Virus record (IMG/VR): IMGVR_UViG_3300030328_001841
Span: 1-32,872 of that record
DNA from: a virus
DNA: 32,872 bases
Reading direction: 5' to 3' (one strand)
The notes below the pieces were generated by a model. The model did no database searches, was not told the origin of the DNA, and was given only the letters and a program-made list of their open reading frames with translations. The translations under genes and the position numbers were made by a program. Every line of letters begins with the position of its first letter. Position 1 is the stretch's first letter. Below are positions 1,113-10,760 of the stretch, in pieces.

Positions 1113-1724
1113 ATGAAAACACTTTTTCCAAATTTAGTACCAAAAAACAGGATCACTAAAAGGATATTTATGAACAACATTACTTTAAAGAAATATAAAG
1201 AATGTAACAGTAGAGAAGGTATGGCTTTTTCTGCTGACTTTTATTATAAAGGAGTTAAACTAGGAGAAATCCAAGATAATGGTATGGGTGGTGAATTACA
1301 AATAGAGACCTATTCAAAAGTTTCTAAAGATGAGTATGAATGGGATGATACTATTCATAAAATATTTGATAGAATAAGTAAAGGAGAATTACATAGAGTA
1401 ACTACTATAAAAAATGATGATGGGTCATTCTTTGAAACTGAGGATGATTTAGCATCATTATTCTATCACATTGTTGACAGACATATAAATACTAAAGAGA
1501 TAAATAAAATCTACAGAAAGGGAATCATTCTAGAATCAAAAGAAGGTAGCTGGGAAGTAGATGGTGCATATAGATGTATTGCTTGGAAACAAACAATACC
1601 AGCCTTCTTAAAAAGAGGTACTACTGCAAAATTGTCTGTAGAGAGAGAATTAAAGAGGTTAATAGATAAAGGTGAAAGAATTATTAATGAAGATTACCTC
1701 AAATCTTTAGGGTTAGTATTCTAA
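1113..1724 (+). CDS. Hypothetical early protein, 203 aa
   Basis: First gene after the AT-rich gap and the only one in its unit, since a strong terminator follows. The protein is mixed alpha/beta, soluble, with no signal peptide or membrane segment. It has many charged residues, an acidic middle, and a Lys/Arg-rich C-terminal helix (ELKRLIDKGERIINEDYLKSL). I recognise no catalytic motif. Start chosen at the first ATG because TTATA lies at -10 relative to it; an internal ATG at 1171 would remove 19 residues. Its position as a stand-alone first gene suggests early host takeover or regulation, which is inference only. Confidence 0.7.
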   Translation: MKTLFPNLVPKNRITKRIFMNNITLKKYKECNSREGMAFSADFYYKGVKLGEIQDNGMGGELQIETYSKVSKDEYEWDDTIHKIFDRISKGELHRVTTIKNDDGSFFETEDDLASLFYHIVDRHINTKEINKIYRKGIILESKEGSWEVDGAYRCIAWKQTIPAFLKRGTTAKLSVERELKRLIDKGERIINEDYLKSLGLVF

Positions 1725-5813: not shown

Positions 5814-6057
5814 GTTAGGAGTAGAATTAGAATTTGAAACTAATACAATTTATAGAGGTGCAGAGATAGATATAGAGAATCTATTTATAGACCAACTGAA
5901 TTTAATCTGGATGGATTTTGAAGCAATACCAAATATGTATGAAGAAGTCCTTGTTACATTTCAGAATATGGAATTACTAGGAAGGATTATAGGAAAATTC
6001 TATCATGTACATAGAGACACATTATTAATAACAGTAACACTAAAACTACAAGAATGA
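5764..6057 (+). CDS. Hypothetical protein, 97 aa (TTG start)
   Basis: The only long start option is TTG 5764, inside the previous gene; the next in-frame ATG lies deep in the conserved-looking body. The protein is beta-rich with alternating acidic and hydrophobic residues (GVELEFETNTIYRGAEIDIE; LIWMDFEAIPNMYEEVLVTF) and ends in HVHRDTLLITVTLKLQE. It overlaps the RecE-like gene by 4 bp (ATGA). Function not recognised; the start is uncertain. Confidence 0.5.
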   Translation: MKELERLNPNYKPKKIELGVELEFETNTIYRGAEIDIENLFIDQLNLIWMDFEAIPNMYEEVLVTFQNMELLGRIIGKFYHVHRDTLLITVTLKLQE

Positions 6058-6830
6058 AAATCACACTATTAGATGGCAAGGTTTGGGATAGAGATGAGAT
6101 CCTGGACAAGTCTGGAGATGATGAATTTTACTATGGATATTTAGGTAAGTATGCCTTCAGCTCCACAGCAATAAAACATTTATTGTCTTCACCAAAAACA
6201 TACAGACATATTTTAGAATATGGTCAATCAGAGGCACAAGCATTAAGAGATGGATGGCTATTCCATACTTGTGTACTAGAACCAGAAGTGTTCAATAGTC
6301 AAATCTTTGTAAATGTCCAGAGTAAGAATACAAAGAAATATAAAGATGCAGTTAAACAATATGGCAAAGTGTTTACTCTTAAAGAGAAACATGATGCAGA
6401 GAGGTTGGCTGATGCTCTACTTAGGAATGAATTGGTGCTTGAGAAGTTGAATGATGCTGAGTTTGAACAAGCAGAAATTGGAGAAGTGTTTGGATTCCCA
6501 TTTAGAGCAAAGGCTGATGTCTTAACAAATAATTCAGAGATGTATGATTTAAAAAGTACAGCATCTCTACAAGGATGGAAATATAGTGCAGACAAATATG
6601 GATATGATGTTCAAGCATTTCTATACTGTACTTTATTTGATATACTGCCTAGCAAGATGGGATTTATTGTAATAGATAAAGGTTCACTTGACATAGGATA
6701 TGCACAAGTAACAGATGAGTTTTATGAAAGAGGTATGATGAAGGTGAAAAAGGCTTTAGCTACTTATGAGGAATGGTTTATGAGAGAGGGTGCAGATTTA
6801 GACCAATATTATATAAACATAGAACTATGA
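6054..6830 (+). CDS. RecE-like exonuclease, PDDEXK_12 (DUF3799) type
   Basis: The 258-residue protein fits the YqaJ/RecE-like group seen in phages. An N-terminal part (AFSSTAIKHLLSSPKTYRHI; GWLFHTCVLEP) is followed by the nuclease core: FRAKADVL (Asp155), MYDLKSTAS (Asp165-Leu-Lys167) and YGYDVQAFLYC (Gln187). These enzymes resect double-stranded ends for single-strand annealing. With the NinG-like, SSB-like and resolvase-like genes it forms a recombination set. No RecT/Erf annealase was recognised, so the partner may be one of the unknown early genes. Confidence 0.78.
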   Translation: MKITLLDGKVWDRDEILDKSGDDEFYYGYLGKYAFSSTAIKHLLSSPKTYRHILEYGQSEAQALRDGWLFHTCVLEPEVFNSQIFVNVQSKNTKKYKDAVKQYGKVFTLKEKHDAERLADALLRNELVLEKLNDAEFEQAEIGEVFGFPFRAKADVLTNNSEMYDLKSTASLQGWKYSADKYGYDVQAFLYCTLFDILPSKMGFIVIDKGSLDIGYAQVTDEFYERGMMKVKKALATYEEWFMREGADLDQYYINIEL

Positions 6831-7003
6831 AACATTACATACCAAAAGAAGATTTAAGATACAATTACAGAACAACTAAAGCTGATATAGCTTTTCAAAA
6901 AAGACTATTGAAATATATAGTTTGGGGATTACCAATATTTACATTTTGGTCTATTATGGGAATTAACTTTTTGTTCTGGATATTTACTGGCAAAGTAGGA
7001 TAG
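6827..7003 (+). CDS. Small membrane protein, 58 aa
   Basis: Starts at ATG 6827, overlapping the RecE-like stop as ATGA; a longer upstream frame lacks support. A charged N-terminal half (KEDLRYNYRTTKADIAFQKR) precedes a long hydrophobic stretch (YIVWGLPIFTFWSIMGINF and beyond) that could span the membrane once or twice. Function unknown. Confidence 0.6.
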   Translation: MKHYIPKEDLRYNYRTTKADIAFQKRLLKYIVWGLPIFTFWSIMGINFLFWIFTGKVG

Positions 7004-7004
7004 G

Positions 7005-7766
7005 ATGGAAAGCAACATAATATACAATGAGGATTGTTTAGAAACTATGATTAGATTTCCAGACAATTCAATAGACCTTGTATTAACATCTCCACCATAT
7101 AACATTATAAGACCTAAAGGTAATGATGTTTATTATGATGTGTATGTTGATAATAAATCAAATAAAGAATATATAGATTGGACTATTGATATATTTAACA
7201 GTTATGATAGAATCTTAAAACCAGATGTGCCAGTAATTTATAATCTAAGTTATGGGCAAGAAAATTCTGAGATCATGAATCTTACATTAGCTGAAATATT
7301 GAAACAGACTAATTTTACATTAGCAGATATTATTGTCTGGAAGAAAGGAAATGCAATACCTAATTCCACATCACATAATAAACTAACTAGAATAGTAGAA
7401 TTTATATATATATTTTGTAGGACTGATGAGTTTCAAACTTTTAAAACTAATAAAGAAATAACAAAGAAGAACTCAGCTGGGCAAACTTACTATGCTAATA
7501 TATTTAATTTTGTTGAAGCAGTTAATCAAGATGAGTATTCTGGCATTAATACAGCTACATTTAGTTCTGAATTAGTGAGAAAACTCTTAGATATATATGC
7601 AAAACCAGACAGTCTGATCTATGATTCTTTTATGGGGACTGGCACAACAGCAGTAGGTGCTTTAAGAAATAACCATAGATATGTAGGGAGTGAGATTAGC
7701 AAACAACAATGTGAATATGCTAATAAAAGATTAAAGCCTTATCTTACACAAACTAAATTATTTTAA
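7005..7766 (+). CDS. DNA amino-methyltransferase, beta-class N6A/N4C
   Basis: The 253-residue protein has catalytic motif IV TSPPYN at 28-33 ahead of the AdoMet-binding motif DSFMGTGTT (about 207-215), the order of beta-class enzymes (N6_N4_Mtase family). It transfers methyl to an exocyclic amino group of A or C in duplex DNA. TSPPYN occurs in both N6A and N4C enzymes, so the base cannot be told. No restriction partner is adjacent, so it is an orphan. It joins the next methyltransferase by TAATG. The genome's context-restricted GATC sites make it a good candidate for protection against host restriction. Confidence 0.88.
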   Translation: MESNIIYNEDCLETMIRFPDNSIDLVLTSPPYNIIRPKGNDVYYDVYVDNKSNKEYIDWTIDIFNSYDRILKPDVPVIYNLSYGQENSEIMNLTLAEILKQTNFTLADIIVWKKGNAIPNSTSHNKLTRIVEFIYIFCRTDEFQTFKTNKEITKKNSAGQTYYANIFNFVEAVNQDEYSGINTATFSSELVRKLLDIYAKPDSLIYDSFMGTGTTAVGALRNNHRYVGSEISKQQCEYANKRLKPYLTQTKLF

Positions 7767-8419
7767 TGAAAGTATTAGAGTTATTTGCTGGGTCTTGTAC
7801 ATTTAGTAATGAAGCTAAAAAACTAGGCTATGAAACTTTTACAACTGACTATAAAGATTTTGATAATGTTGATTATGTTACTGACATTATTAGTTTTGAT
7901 ATTAAACAAGTTCCATTTAAGCCAGACTTGATATGGGCATCTCCTCCTTGTACAGCATTTACTGTTATGAGAATTGCTGATAATTGGCATTTTGATAATA
8001 CACCTAAATCATCTAAGGCTTGTTTAGGATTAGCATATGTCTATAAAACTATAGAGATTATAAAAAAGCTAGAGCCTAAATTTTGGTACATAGAGAATCC
8101 TAGAGGTAAACTTAGGAAGATGAAGATTATGGAGAATCTAGACAGAACAACAATATGGTATTGTCAATATGGTGAGACTAGAGCAAAGCCAACTGATATA
8201 TGGTCAAATAATATTAGGTCATTAGAAAATCCAGATGGTTGGAATCCTAAACCAGAGTGTTTTAATAACAATCCTAATTGTCATCATGAGAGAGCAAGTA
8301 GGGGTGTGTGGAATACTGGAACTCAGAGACTAACTAATAAGAAGTTAGGTAATAATTATGAGAGGAGTATTCTGCCAGTAGAATTATGTGTAGAAATTTT
8401 AAAAAGTAGTAAATTATGA
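7766..8419 (+). CDS. C5-cytosine-methyltransferase-like protein, compact
   Basis: Motif I is ELFAGSCTF (5-13), motif IV ASPPCT with the candidate catalytic Cys62, motif VI YIENPRG (108-114), and a motif-VIII-like segment QYGETRAKPTDIWSN. At 217 residues it is far shorter than typical C5 enzymes (over 300 aa) and leaves little room for a target-recognition domain between motifs VIII and X. It may have a short target, need a partner, or act on an unusual substrate. It directly follows the amino-MTase gene. The complete lack of CpG in this genome makes its target of interest. Confidence 0.8.
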   Translation: MKVLELFAGSCTFSNEAKKLGYETFTTDYKDFDNVDYVTDIISFDIKQVPFKPDLIWASPPCTAFTVMRIADNWHFDNTPKSSKACLGLAYVYKTIEIIKKLEPKFWYIENPRGKLRKMKIMENLDRTTIWYCQYGETRAKPTDIWSNNIRSLENPDGWNPKPECFNNNPNCHHERASRGVWNTGTQRLTNKKLGNNYERSILPVELCVEILKSSKL

Positions 8420-8700
8420 TTAGAAAAGATTACCCAGTTTGGACTGGTGTTTTAAAGTATTTCCCAGATGCTCTTATGGAAGTGTCCAGAGTGAGCAAGA
8501 TTGGAAATGAACAACACAATAAAGGTCTTCCTATACATTGGGATAAAACAAAAAGTACAGATAACCTAGATGCTTTAACTAGACACCTCTTACAAGCAGA
8601 GGAAATAGATGATGATGGAGTATCACACTTAGCAAAGGTAGCTTGGAGAGCCTTAGCTGCATTACAAATTAAATTAGAAAACAATGAGAAACAGAAGTAG
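8416..8700 (+). CDS. dATP/dGTP diphosphohydrolase-like protein
   Basis: The 94 residues match the phage family often annotated as dATP/dGTP diphosphohydrolase N-terminal domain: VLKYFPDALMEVSRVSKIGN, EQHNKG, HWDKTKSTDNLDALTRHLL, HLAKVAWRALAALQ. It is all-helical. Related MazG/MazZ-type proteins hydrolyse dNTPs to dNMPs and may shift the nucleotide pool. It overlaps the C5-MTase-like gene by ATGA, so pool control and DNA modification are co-expressed. No PurZ-like gene is present, so there is no sign of the 2-aminoadenine pathway. Activity is inferred from family only. Confidence 0.65.
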   Translation: MIRKDYPVWTGVLKYFPDALMEVSRVSKIGNEQHNKGLPIHWDKTKSTDNLDALTRHLLQAEEIDDDGVSHLAKVAWRALAALQIKLENNEKQK

Positions 8701-9124
8701 AATAAGAAACTTGATAAATGAAATTGAAGCATTATCAGGAATTGAGATATTTAACCCAAGTAGAAGAAGGGAAAATGTAGAAGTAAGGTCTTTATTATAT
8801 ACAGTATTAAAGAAATTCTATAGATTTAATCTAAGAGAAATTCAGGATCTGGCTGAGGAGTATGGTTATTTTATAACTCATGCTAGTGTAATCCATAGCT
8901 TAAATTCATTTGATATATATTCAAAATACAATACAAACTTATTAGATTGGTATAATGCTATCATTATAGATTTAGAAGAAGATGTGGCTGCTGCTAGAAT
9001 AGATTTTATTAGACCTAAATTGAAATATCTTTCAGAGGAGGACTTGTTAAAGTTATCAACAATTGTAAAAGAAATGTATGAAGATGCTGTTATACAAATG
9101 AGTGAAGAAAACTTACAAACTTGA
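8684..9124 (+). CDS. DnaA domain-IV-like DNA-binding protein
   Basis: The 146-residue protein includes a stretch resembling the C-terminal DNA-binding domain of DnaA: RRRENVEVRSLLYTVLKKFY, NLREIQDLAEEYGYFITHAS and VIHSL (compare the DnaA signature with His-Ser/Thr-Thr-Val-Leu/Ile-His). There is no ATPase domain. Such phage proteins may bind the replication origin or compete for DnaA boxes. It overlaps the upstream gene by 17 bp. The AT-rich 952-1112 region is one possible target, but no boxes were identified. Confidence 0.5.
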   Translation: MRNRSRIRNLINEIEALSGIEIFNPSRRRENVEVRSLLYTVLKKFYRFNLREIQDLAEEYGYFITHASVIHSLNSFDIYSKYNTNLLDWYNAIIIDLEEDVAAARIDFIRPKLKYLSEEDLLKLSTIVKEMYEDAVIQMSEENLQT

Positions 9125-9314: not shown

Positions 9315-9625
9315 AAGTATTTGCAAGTAAGATGGGAAATGTAAGTAAGGCTTGTAAAGCAGCTAACATTTCTAGACAGACTTTTTATGATTGGATGAAG
9401 GATCAGAGTTTTTCTGAAAAGGTTGAAGAAGTAAAAGAAGGCTTGTTAGATTTTGCAGAACACCAATTACTATCAAATATTAAAAGTGGTAAAACTGCTG
9501 AGATCCTGTTTTATTTAAAAACCAAAGGTAAGAAAAGAGGTTACATAGAAAGACAAGAAGTAGATACAGTAGGAGATAAGATGTTTGAGGTAAAGATTCT
9601 AAAGAATGAAACAGATACAGACTAA
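9287..9625 (+). CDS. Terminase small subunit-like HTH protein
   Basis: The 112-residue protein has an N-terminal helix-turn-helix (GNVSKACKAANISRQTFYDW) typical of phage small terminase DNA-binding domains, followed by a helical oligomerisation part (GLLDFAEHQLLSNIKSGKTA, EILFYLKTKGKKRGY). It overlaps the large-terminase gene by 20 bp, the expected arrangement. It would recognise the packaging site and load the large subunit. Confidence 0.8.
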   Translation: MAKDRDKFLEVFASKMGNVSKACKAANISRQTFYDWMKDQSFSEKVEEVKEGLLDFAEHQLLSNIKSGKTAEILFYLKTKGKKRGYIERQEVDTVGDKMFEVKILKNETDTD

Positions 9626-10760
9626 TGTTGTATTTGAACTATTAGAAAAGAACACATCTAAAATAACTTGCCTACAAGGAGGTTCTAGGTCTGGTAAAAC
9701 TTACAATACACTATTATGGATTATATTCTCATACTGTCATAAGAATACTGGTAAAGTTATTAGCTGCTGTAGAAAGACTATGCCCAGTCTCAAAAGTTCA
9801 ACTATTAGGGATTTTTTAGAGATACTCAGAAACAATGAGCTGTACTCAGAAATCTATCACAACAAAACATCTAATGAATATTGGCTTAATGGAAACCTTA
9901 TAGAGTTCTTTAGTTTAGATATGGGGTCCAGAGTAAGAGGAAGAAAGAGAGACCTTCTATTTATCAATGAAGCAAATGAGATAGATTATGAGGCTTGGAA
10001 TCAGCTCCTATTTAGAACAGATGGTAGAATCATATTAGACTATAACCCACATGATCAATTCCATTGGATATATGATAAGGTTCTAGATAGACCAGATGCT
10101 CAACTACACATCTCTACATATCTAGATAATCCATTTATATCAGACACACTTAAAACAGAGATAGAAAGATTAAAAGATACAGACCCACAATATTGGTTAG
10201 TATATGGACTTGGACAAAGAGGTCAGAATAGGTCATTAGTATTTAAGTTCCATATAATAGATGAAATACCATCTACTGCTAAGTTTATAGGTTATGGATT
10301 AGACTTTGGCTATGCATCTGATCCTTCAAGTTTATGTGCTACCTGGACAGAAGGTGATAATATGTACACTAAGGAATTACTCTATGAAAGAGGACTTACA
10401 AATCAAGACTTAGCAAACAAGTTCTCTGAACTAGGATTAGATAAAAGAGATGAGATATTTGGAGATTCCTCAGAGCCTAAATCTATAGAGGAGATATATA
10501 GGATGGGATGGAATATAAAAGGTAAGAAGAAGTTTGAAATAAACTATGGTATAGACCTTATTAGAAGATATAAGCTACATATAACTAGAGATAGTTTAAA
10601 TGGTATTAGAGAACTAGAAAGCTACAAATACATAGAAGACAGAAATAACAATCCAACAAATAAACCACAGGATCTCAACAACCATTTTTGTGATGCCTTA
10701 AGATATAGTATAGTGCATAGATTATCTAGAGTTAATTTTGGGAGGTATGCTATTAAATAA
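9606..10760 (+). CDS. terL: Terminase large subunit
   Basis: A 384-residue packaging motor. Walker A is GGSRSGKT (25-32) and Walker B LLFINEAN (117-124). The C-terminal RNaseH-like nuclease has acidic residues in GLDFGYASD (Asp233), FGDSSEPKSI (Asp287) and HFCDALRYS (Asp363). Length is slightly short compared with 420-500 aa but all motifs are present. It cuts and pumps DNA into proheads with the portal (25116-26924). Directly after the stop comes a candidate structured RNA, then an opposing gene cluster. Confidence 0.92.
   Translation: MKQIQTNVVFELLEKNTSKITCLQGGSRSGKTYNTLLWIIFSYCHKNTGKVISCCRKTMPSLKSSTIRDFLEILRNNELYSEIYHNKTSNEYWLNGNLIEFFSLDMGSRVRGRKRDLLFINEANEIDYEAWNQLLFRTDGRIILDYNPHDQFHWIYDKVLDRPDAQLHISTYLDNPFISDTLKTEIERLKDTDPQYWLVYGLGQRGQNRSLVFKFHIIDEIPSTAKFIGYGLDFGYASDPSSLCATWTEGDNMYTKELLYERGLTNQDLANKFSELGLDKRDEIFGDSSEPKSIEEIYRMGWNIKGKKKFEINYGIDLIRRYKLHITRDSLNGIRELESYKYIEDRNNNPTNKPQDLNNHFCDALRYSIVHRLSRVNFGRYAIK

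What the first reader, a model, noticed from the sequence alone, without database searches (positions are those of the whole stretch)
7005..8700. Modification cassette: amino-MTase, compact C5-MTase-like and dNTP diphosphohydrolase-like genes
Three genes are joined by overlapping starts and stops. The C5-type protein has motifs I, IV and VI but almost no room for a recognition domain. The third protein may adjust dATP/dGTP pools. Together with the genome-wide CpG, GATC and GGCC patterns, this cassette may produce a new pattern of DNA modification.
Basis: partly seen in the sequence, partly recalled or inferred. Interest (0 to 1): 0.7.

Follow-up and report, generated by a model that had tools for sequence, protein, structure and literature searches.

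The report
Anti-restriction methyltransferases in a CpG-free phage
Two DNA-methylating genes of a marine bacterial virus look like swappable shields against bacterial DNA-cutting enzymes, the smaller probably guarding the sequence CCWGG, and the virus and its close relatives turn out to have removed almost every CG pair from their genomes.

Summary
The three overlapping genes are real: an N6/N4 amino-methyltransferase (7005-7766), a compact C5-type methyltransferase (7766-8419) and a PF18909/DUF5664 dNTP hydrolase-like gene (8416-8700). They are not one modification pathway. In relatives the hydrolase gene is core, while the space before it is a variable slot holding amino-MTases, the compact C5 gene, HNH genes or nothing. 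The C5 protein keeps its catalytic residues and folds like M.HhaI with almost no recognition domain. Within its clade, 9 of 9 contigs with the C5 gene keep CCWGG sites (57 observed/84 expected), whereas 19 without it avoid them (12/245). I infer that it methylates CCWGG to block host restriction. Only 2-4 evolutionary changes support this, it did not replicate cleanly outside the clade, and L106/L107 contradict it there. The CpG pattern has nothing to do with the cassette: the window has no CpG (about 795 expected), and 51 clade contigs have 11 CpG against 17,514 expected, with or without any MTase. That near-absolute CpG loss, probably purged by an unknown CG-directed host defence, is the most surprising result.

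The parts
7005..7766 (+). N6/N4 amino-methyltransferase gene, 253 aa, order SPPY then FMGTG; specificity unknown
   Evidence: PF01555 112.5 bits, phrog_67 168.5 bits
7766..8419 (+). compact C5-cytosine methyltransferase gene, 217 aa; predicted CCWGG protection
   Evidence: PF00145 30.2 bits, phrog_757 92.8 bits; fold; motif association
8416..8700 (+). PF18909/DUF5664 dATP/dGTP hydrolase-like gene, 94 aa; core gene of the clade, not tied to the MTases
   Evidence: PF18909 52.6 bits; presence in relatives
6054..6830 (+). DUF3799/exonuclease VIII-like gene, left border of the variable slot
   Evidence: PF12684 59.7 bits, phrog_412 102.9 bits; synteny
6831..8415 (+). variable slot between exonuclease and hydrolase genes; in relatives filled with HNH genes, other amino-MTases, C5 or nothing
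8684..9124 (+). conserved 146-aa gene right of the hydrolase; a Mom or HNH gene may sit before it in relatives
9606..10760 (+). terminase large subunit, used to find the clade
   Evidence: PF04466 68.8 bits
1..32872 (.). whole window: no CpG dinucleotide

Best explanation
The two MTase genes are swappable counter-restriction genes in a hot spot of a marine phage lineage, probably of Flavobacteriaceae. The compact C5 enzyme methylates a cytosine in CCWGG, so that a host CCWGG restriction enzyme cannot cut; relatives without it escape by having almost no CCWGG sites. The amino-MTase protects another site that I could not identify. The third gene is an ordinary dNTP-pool hydrolase that only happens to sit at the border of the slot. 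The steps from association to methylation and from methylation to protection are inferred; motif counts, gene content and fold are shown by computation.
For: Unbiased scan of 1,898 words of 4-6 bases: CCTGGA and CCAGG (the CCWGG site, contained in the first) rank first for difference between 9 C5+ and 19 C5- contigs (p 7.9e-6 and 1.6e-5, Mann-Whitney, not corrected for kinship or number of words); CCAGG O/E 57/84 against 12/245 with no overlap (min 0.48, max 0.38). It holds against a protein- and codon-preserving shuffle (46 observed vs 21 expected in C5+, 10 vs 38.5 in C5-). Contigs fetched later: C5+ 5/6.4 (2 contigs), C5- 4/39.2 (12 contigs; 2/25.2 after dropping 4 near-duplicates). Both C5 subtypes of the clade (window-like, and L023/L056 at 63%) show it, while CCAGA/CCAGC tolerance does not follow C5. 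L025, which tolerates most other motifs, has no C5 and has CCAGG 1/27. Catalytic SPPC and ENP are invariant in 45 of 45 homologues. The slot swaps contents while exonuclease and hydrolase genes stay. A Polaribacter (marine Flavobacteriaceae) MAG had methylated CCWGG and a GGCC methyltransferase (PMC12570018, passages seen).
Against: On the tree C5 changes 4 times and only 2 changes lie on well-supported branches, so the kinship-aware sign test cannot reach significance. Outside the clade: L106, L107 and L332 carry C5 (L106 about 64% identical to the window's) yet avoid CCWGG (1/18, 0/7, 1/6). In the L122 group C5+ is 46/47 against 127/335 for C5-, but the nearest C5- relatives (L181, L184, L185, L187, L188, L251) also have near-normal CCWGG, the C5+ locus L223 is low (2/7.8), and CCAGG ranks only 247th of 2,000 by p. 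In the L137 group CCWGG is avoided by neither set. C5- contig L435 has 2/3.4. L032, L045 and L051 keep some CCWGG but their slot is off the contig, so they were not counted. No host or activity is known.
Confidence: 0.6

Rival explanations
1. The C5 protein is a real methyltransferase, but its target is wider than or different from CCWGG; the CCWGG pattern reflects which hosts C5-carrying phages infect.
For: Only 2-4 independent changes; L106-type homologues do not go with CCWGG; close C5- relatives in the L122 group keep CCWGG.
Against: CCWGG is the top word of 1,898 and separates the clade without overlap; two C5 subtypes agree.
Confidence: 0.27
2. The three genes are one pathway that makes a new modified base, with the hydrolase shaping the dNTP pool.
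For: Overlapping genes; DUF5664 proteins work in Z-DNA phages (PMC12884076, passages seen).
Against: The hydrolase gene is present without either MTase in most relatives; no PurZ-type gene in 9 of 9 genomes; MTases act on polymerised DNA and need no pool change (established knowledge).
Confidence: 0.05
3. The cassette causes the CpG absence, for example by CpG methylation followed by deamination to TpG.
For: CA/TG are enriched (1.20).
Against: Clade members without these MTases are equally CpG-free; other phages with this C5 family have CpG o/e 0.1-1.3; an MTase whose target is absent would be odd.
Confidence: 0.02
4. The MTase genes are degenerate passengers of a homing or recombination hot spot, with no protective role.
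For: HNH genes share the slot.
Against: Open frames, catalytic residues kept in 45 of 45, motif tolerance.
Confidence: 0.06

Closest known systems
C5 DNA methyltransferases (M.HhaI, M.HaeIII; PF00145)
   Same: fold over the whole protein (M.HhaI 1fjx Z 15.7, rmsd 3.9, 201 aligned; M.HaeIII 1dct Z 14.7), SPPC and EN- motifs
   Different: 217 aa against 324-327 aa; the recognition domain is cut to a loop of roughly 45 residues with conserved C and H; ENP instead of ENV (usual motif recalled)
phrog_757 phage DNA methyltransferases (e.g. Bacillus phage BM15 gp128, Haloferax tailed virus 1 gp60)
   Same: window protein matches phrog_757 at 92.8 bits; 35-40% identity to these phage proteins
   Different: CpG o/e is 0.95 and 1.39 around the gene in those phages; their specificity is not known to me
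Dcm / M.EcoRII CCWGG methyltransferases
   Same: predicted target CCWGG
   Different: those enzymes are about twice as long (recalled); no direct comparison was run here
DUF5664 dATP/dGTP hydrolases (Arthrobacter phage Wayne; fused in Acinetobacter phage SH-Ab 15497)
   Same: PF18909 domain (that PF18909 equals DUF5664 is recalled); Wayne's protein hydrolyses dATP, dGTP and dUTP (PMC12884076, passages)
   Different: no PurZ-type gene here
Restriction-site avoidance in phages (PMC6286503, abstract start and passages)
   Same: short sites removed from the genome
   Different: here a dinucleotide is depleted about 1,600-fold

Membership tests
C5 cytosine DNA methyltransferase | catalytic cysteine in PC motif (IV) and EN motif (VI) | tested here: met
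   SPPC and ENP invariant in 45 of 45 aligned sequences
C5 cytosine DNA methyltransferase | Rossmann-type fold with C-terminal motif X helix | tested here: met
   pLDDT 89; model 1-217 aligns to M.HhaI 12-322, Z 15.7
C5 cytosine DNA methyltransferase | target-recognition domain of usual size (about 100 residues or more, recalled) | tested here: not met
   217 aa in all; about 45 residues between motifs VIII and X; low pLDDT 56-72 at residues 171-200. A small domain does not exclude activity
C5 cytosine DNA methyltransferase | methyl transfer to C5 | not testable with these tools
   needs biochemistry
CCWGG methyltransferase | modifies CCWGG | tested here: inconclusive
   indirect genomic association only, strong in the clade, not replicated outside
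N6_N4 amino-methyltransferase (PF01555) | profile match with PPY and FxGxG motifs | tested here: met
   112.5 bits over 1-221 of 221; TSPPY and FMGTG in the translation
DUF5664 dNTP hydrolase (PF18909) | profile match | tested here: met
   52.6 bits, cut-off 27
Z-DNA (2-aminoadenine) system | PurZ adenylosuccinate synthetase homologue | tested here: not met
   PF00709 in 0 of 9 genomes incl. the window; the control rings in 14 of 14
Restriction-modification system | cognate endonuclease next to the MTase | tested here: inconclusive
   no restriction nuclease among the neighbouring proteins scanned; the DUF3799 neighbour looks like a recombination exonuclease

The most novel reading that the evidence does not exclude
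This clade of marine phages lives under a host defence that recognises the bare dinucleotide CG in phage DNA (or in its RNA), so strong that essentially every CpG is purged: a bacterial counterpart of CpG sensing. MTase genes in the swap slot handle longer restriction sites, but none handles CG, so the phages evolved CpG-free genomes instead.
Probability: 0.35. Interest if true: 0.88.

Novelty: new variant of a known kind. Interest (0 to 1): 0.62.

Why it matters
The clade offers a natural experiment: motifs that are nearly zero in most members reappear where a matching MTase gene is present. That could read the specificity of uncharacterised phage MTases from metagenomes without biochemistry, and it gives one concrete prediction (a 217-aa C5 enzyme for CCWGG, with almost no recognition domain). 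The same genomes lack CpG about 1,600-fold; no restriction system that I know of cuts at a bare CG, so the cause is an open, testable question.

Tried and rejected
Nearest isolate phages by portal protein are Nonlabens phages P12024S/L at 40%, and P12024S has normal CpG, 1047 against 1110 expected. tRNA genes: none. PDB by sequence with the 9-row C5 alignment: none; with the hydrolase only a chance match at E 0.22.

Rejected: the CpG absence as a product of the C5 gene; as an amino-acid or codon-usage effect (a codon-preserving shuffle expects 202 CpG at codon joints, range 176-228, observed 0); as an assembly artefact (clade contigs come from many samples, and sample 3300030376 also yields contigs with CpG o/e 0.42 and 0.345: L049 with none against L245 and L461). 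Z-DNA. CCAGA/CCAGC tolerance as the C5 footprint. The amino-MTase specificity stayed open: only window and L008 carry it.

Rows dropped: near-duplicates L015, L022, L039 and L041 and contigs without the slot were left out; L046, L048 and L054 (CpG o/e 0.48-0.63) were kept out of the CpG-null count and are told in the report; L059 and L050 fell out of the tree because of short core proteins (26 of 28 rows used). In some searches records were searched, 29 of the 80 L122-group loci. In one search only loci of 6 kb or more were used. In one search, 45 sequences were aligned out of the 80 loci plus window and L003.

Literature: ten searches of the open PMC library. I saw no paper describing CpG-free phage genomes in their listings, and that library lacks most subscription journals. 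Papers seen only by passages: PMC12707154, PMC12570018, PMC12884076, PMC6286503.

Full report
OBSERVATION. Three ORFs at 7005-7766, 7766-8419 and 8416-8700 overlap by 1 and 4 bases, and the third overlaps the next ORF. Pfam calls them N6_N4_Mtase (112.5 bits), DNA_methylase (30.2 bits, cut-off 22) and dGTP_diPhyd_N (52.6 bits); PHROGs agrees for the two MTases (phrog_67, phrog_757). The trio is conserved at 93-95% protein identity in L002/L008.

SURROUNDINGS. The window is a 32,872-base virus record with terminase, portal, protease, tape-measure-like, holin, NinG and helicase-like genes. Its terminase found 53 related loci in IMG/VR. The closest isolate phages by portal are Nonlabens phages from seawater (40%), so a marine flavobacterial host is likely but not shown.

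THE CASSETTE IS A SLOT. In oriented contigs of the relatives the order exonuclease - [slot] - PF18909 gene - [second slot] - 146-aa gene - terminases is kept. The first slot holds HNH-like genes, small amino-MTases with near-identical ends and different middles, the large amino-MTase (window and L008 only), the compact C5 gene (9 contigs), combinations of these, or nothing but a small conserved ORF at most (L024, L034, L038, L039, L042, L044, L055). The second slot may hold an HNH gene or a Mom gene (PF25680, E 7.6e-66 in L021). The hydrolase gene is thus core and independent of the MTases. DUF5664 enzymes hydrolyse dATP, dGTP and dUTP, and occur in phages with canonical DNA too (PMC12884076, passages). 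No PurZ homologue was found in 9 genomes.

THE C5 PROTEIN. An alignment search gave 167 viral loci with this family (80 kept). SPPC and ENP are invariant in 45 of 45 aligned members. A first AlphaFold2 model from 9 sequences had pLDDT 76.8; a second from 45 sequences had 89.0, pTM 0.88. The model's 217 residues span M.HhaI 12-322 with 201 aligned, Z 15.7, rmsd 3.9; M.HaeIII Z 14.7; DNMT3B Z 15.0. So the catalytic core is complete and about 110 residues, mostly the recognition domain, are missing. A C5-carboxymethyltransferase (8yf3) is also among the rows (Z 13.5, no better than others); an unusual methyl donor is not excluded.

NATURAL EXPERIMENT. Genomes of the clade avoid many short motifs. 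I compared 9 contigs with C5 and 19 without it, all with the slot on the contig, over 1,898 words. CCTGGA and CCAGG come first: CCAGG 57/84 in C5+ against 12/245 in C5-, no overlap between groups. A protein- and codon-preserving shuffle gives 46 observed/21 expected against 10/38.5. Contigs fetched later agree: 5/6.4 (2 C5+ contigs) against 4/39.2 (12 C5- contigs), or 2/25.2 after dropping four near-duplicates; L435 (2/3.4) is an exception. C5 changes 4 times on the tree of core proteins, 2 of them on supported branches, and CCWGG tolerance follows in both tested pairs, which is too few for significance. Outside the clade the link is weak or absent: L122 group 46/47 against 127/335, but near C5- relatives are tolerant as well and L223 (C5+) is not; L137 group shows no avoidance; L106, L107 and L332 carry C5 and still avoid CCWGG. 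I therefore claim CCWGG protection only for the C5 genes of this clade. A Polaribacter MAG with methylated CCWGG (PMC12570018, passages) shows that such a system exists in related hosts.

CpG. The window has 0 CpG against 795 expected. In 51 contigs of the clade (751,510 bases, window included; L046, L048 and L054 excluded) there are 11 CpG against 17,514 expected; 47 of 51 have none; 5 of the 11 lie in the first 560 bases of L010 and 4 in L055. All other dinucleotides lie between 0.93 and 1.24. Shuffling synonymous codons in the window would put about 202 CpG at codon joints. Fourteen further clade contigs had 0 CpG except L443 (2) and L444 (1), both copies of L055. The nearest relatives outside, L046/L048/L054, have o/e 0.48-0.63, and the null clade is compatible with one origin, though support is modest (73/41). 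More distant relatives have 0.10-1.26. The absence does not depend on C5, N-MTase or Mom genes. A mutational cause would need CpG to be lost over a thousand times faster than made and would probably also erode the host; purging selection by a CG-directed defence is my favoured guess, without direct evidence.

VERDICT. An ordinary kind of anti-restriction module with one unusual enzyme and one specific prediction, inside a phage clade whose CpG-free genome is the truly surprising feature.

Noticed in passing
window 1-32872; 50 relatives among L008-L060: Nearly complete absence of CpG across a clade of marine phages: 11 observed, 17,514 expected in 751,510 bases.
   Followed up: partly
null-clade contigs: GTCAC/GTGAC (25/643), CACTG/CAGTG (81/1002) and GACTC/GAGTC (60/668) are also strongly avoided, as are many six-base palindromes.
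   Followed up: no
L025 (full contig L065-L066): Tolerates most avoided motifs (CCAGA, CCAGC, CACTG, GGCC) but not CCWGG or CpG; carries a Mom-family gene and an amino-MTase. L053 and L021 also have the Mom-family gene but stay intolerant.
   Followed up: partly
L024, L055: GATC is zero (69-89 expected in L055) although clade relatives have it at normal levels.
   Followed up: no
window 1113-1724: 203-aa protein without Pfam or PHROG match; its family is seen in window, L037 and L019 only, of which window and L037 tolerate CCAGA and L019 partly.
   Followed up: no
L014, L019, L020, L025, L026, L049, L050 slot genes: Small amino-MTases share near-identical ends with different central parts, as if recognition parts were swapped.
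   Followed up: no
L332/L388; L023, L056: C5-carrying contigs with normal or high GGCC (20/7; 12/11; 12/11) while L106 and most relatives lack it; specificities may differ among C5 subtypes.
   Followed up: partly
window and L008, whole sequence: Low CATG, AGATC and CCTG compared with the rest of the clade; cause unknown.
   Followed up: no
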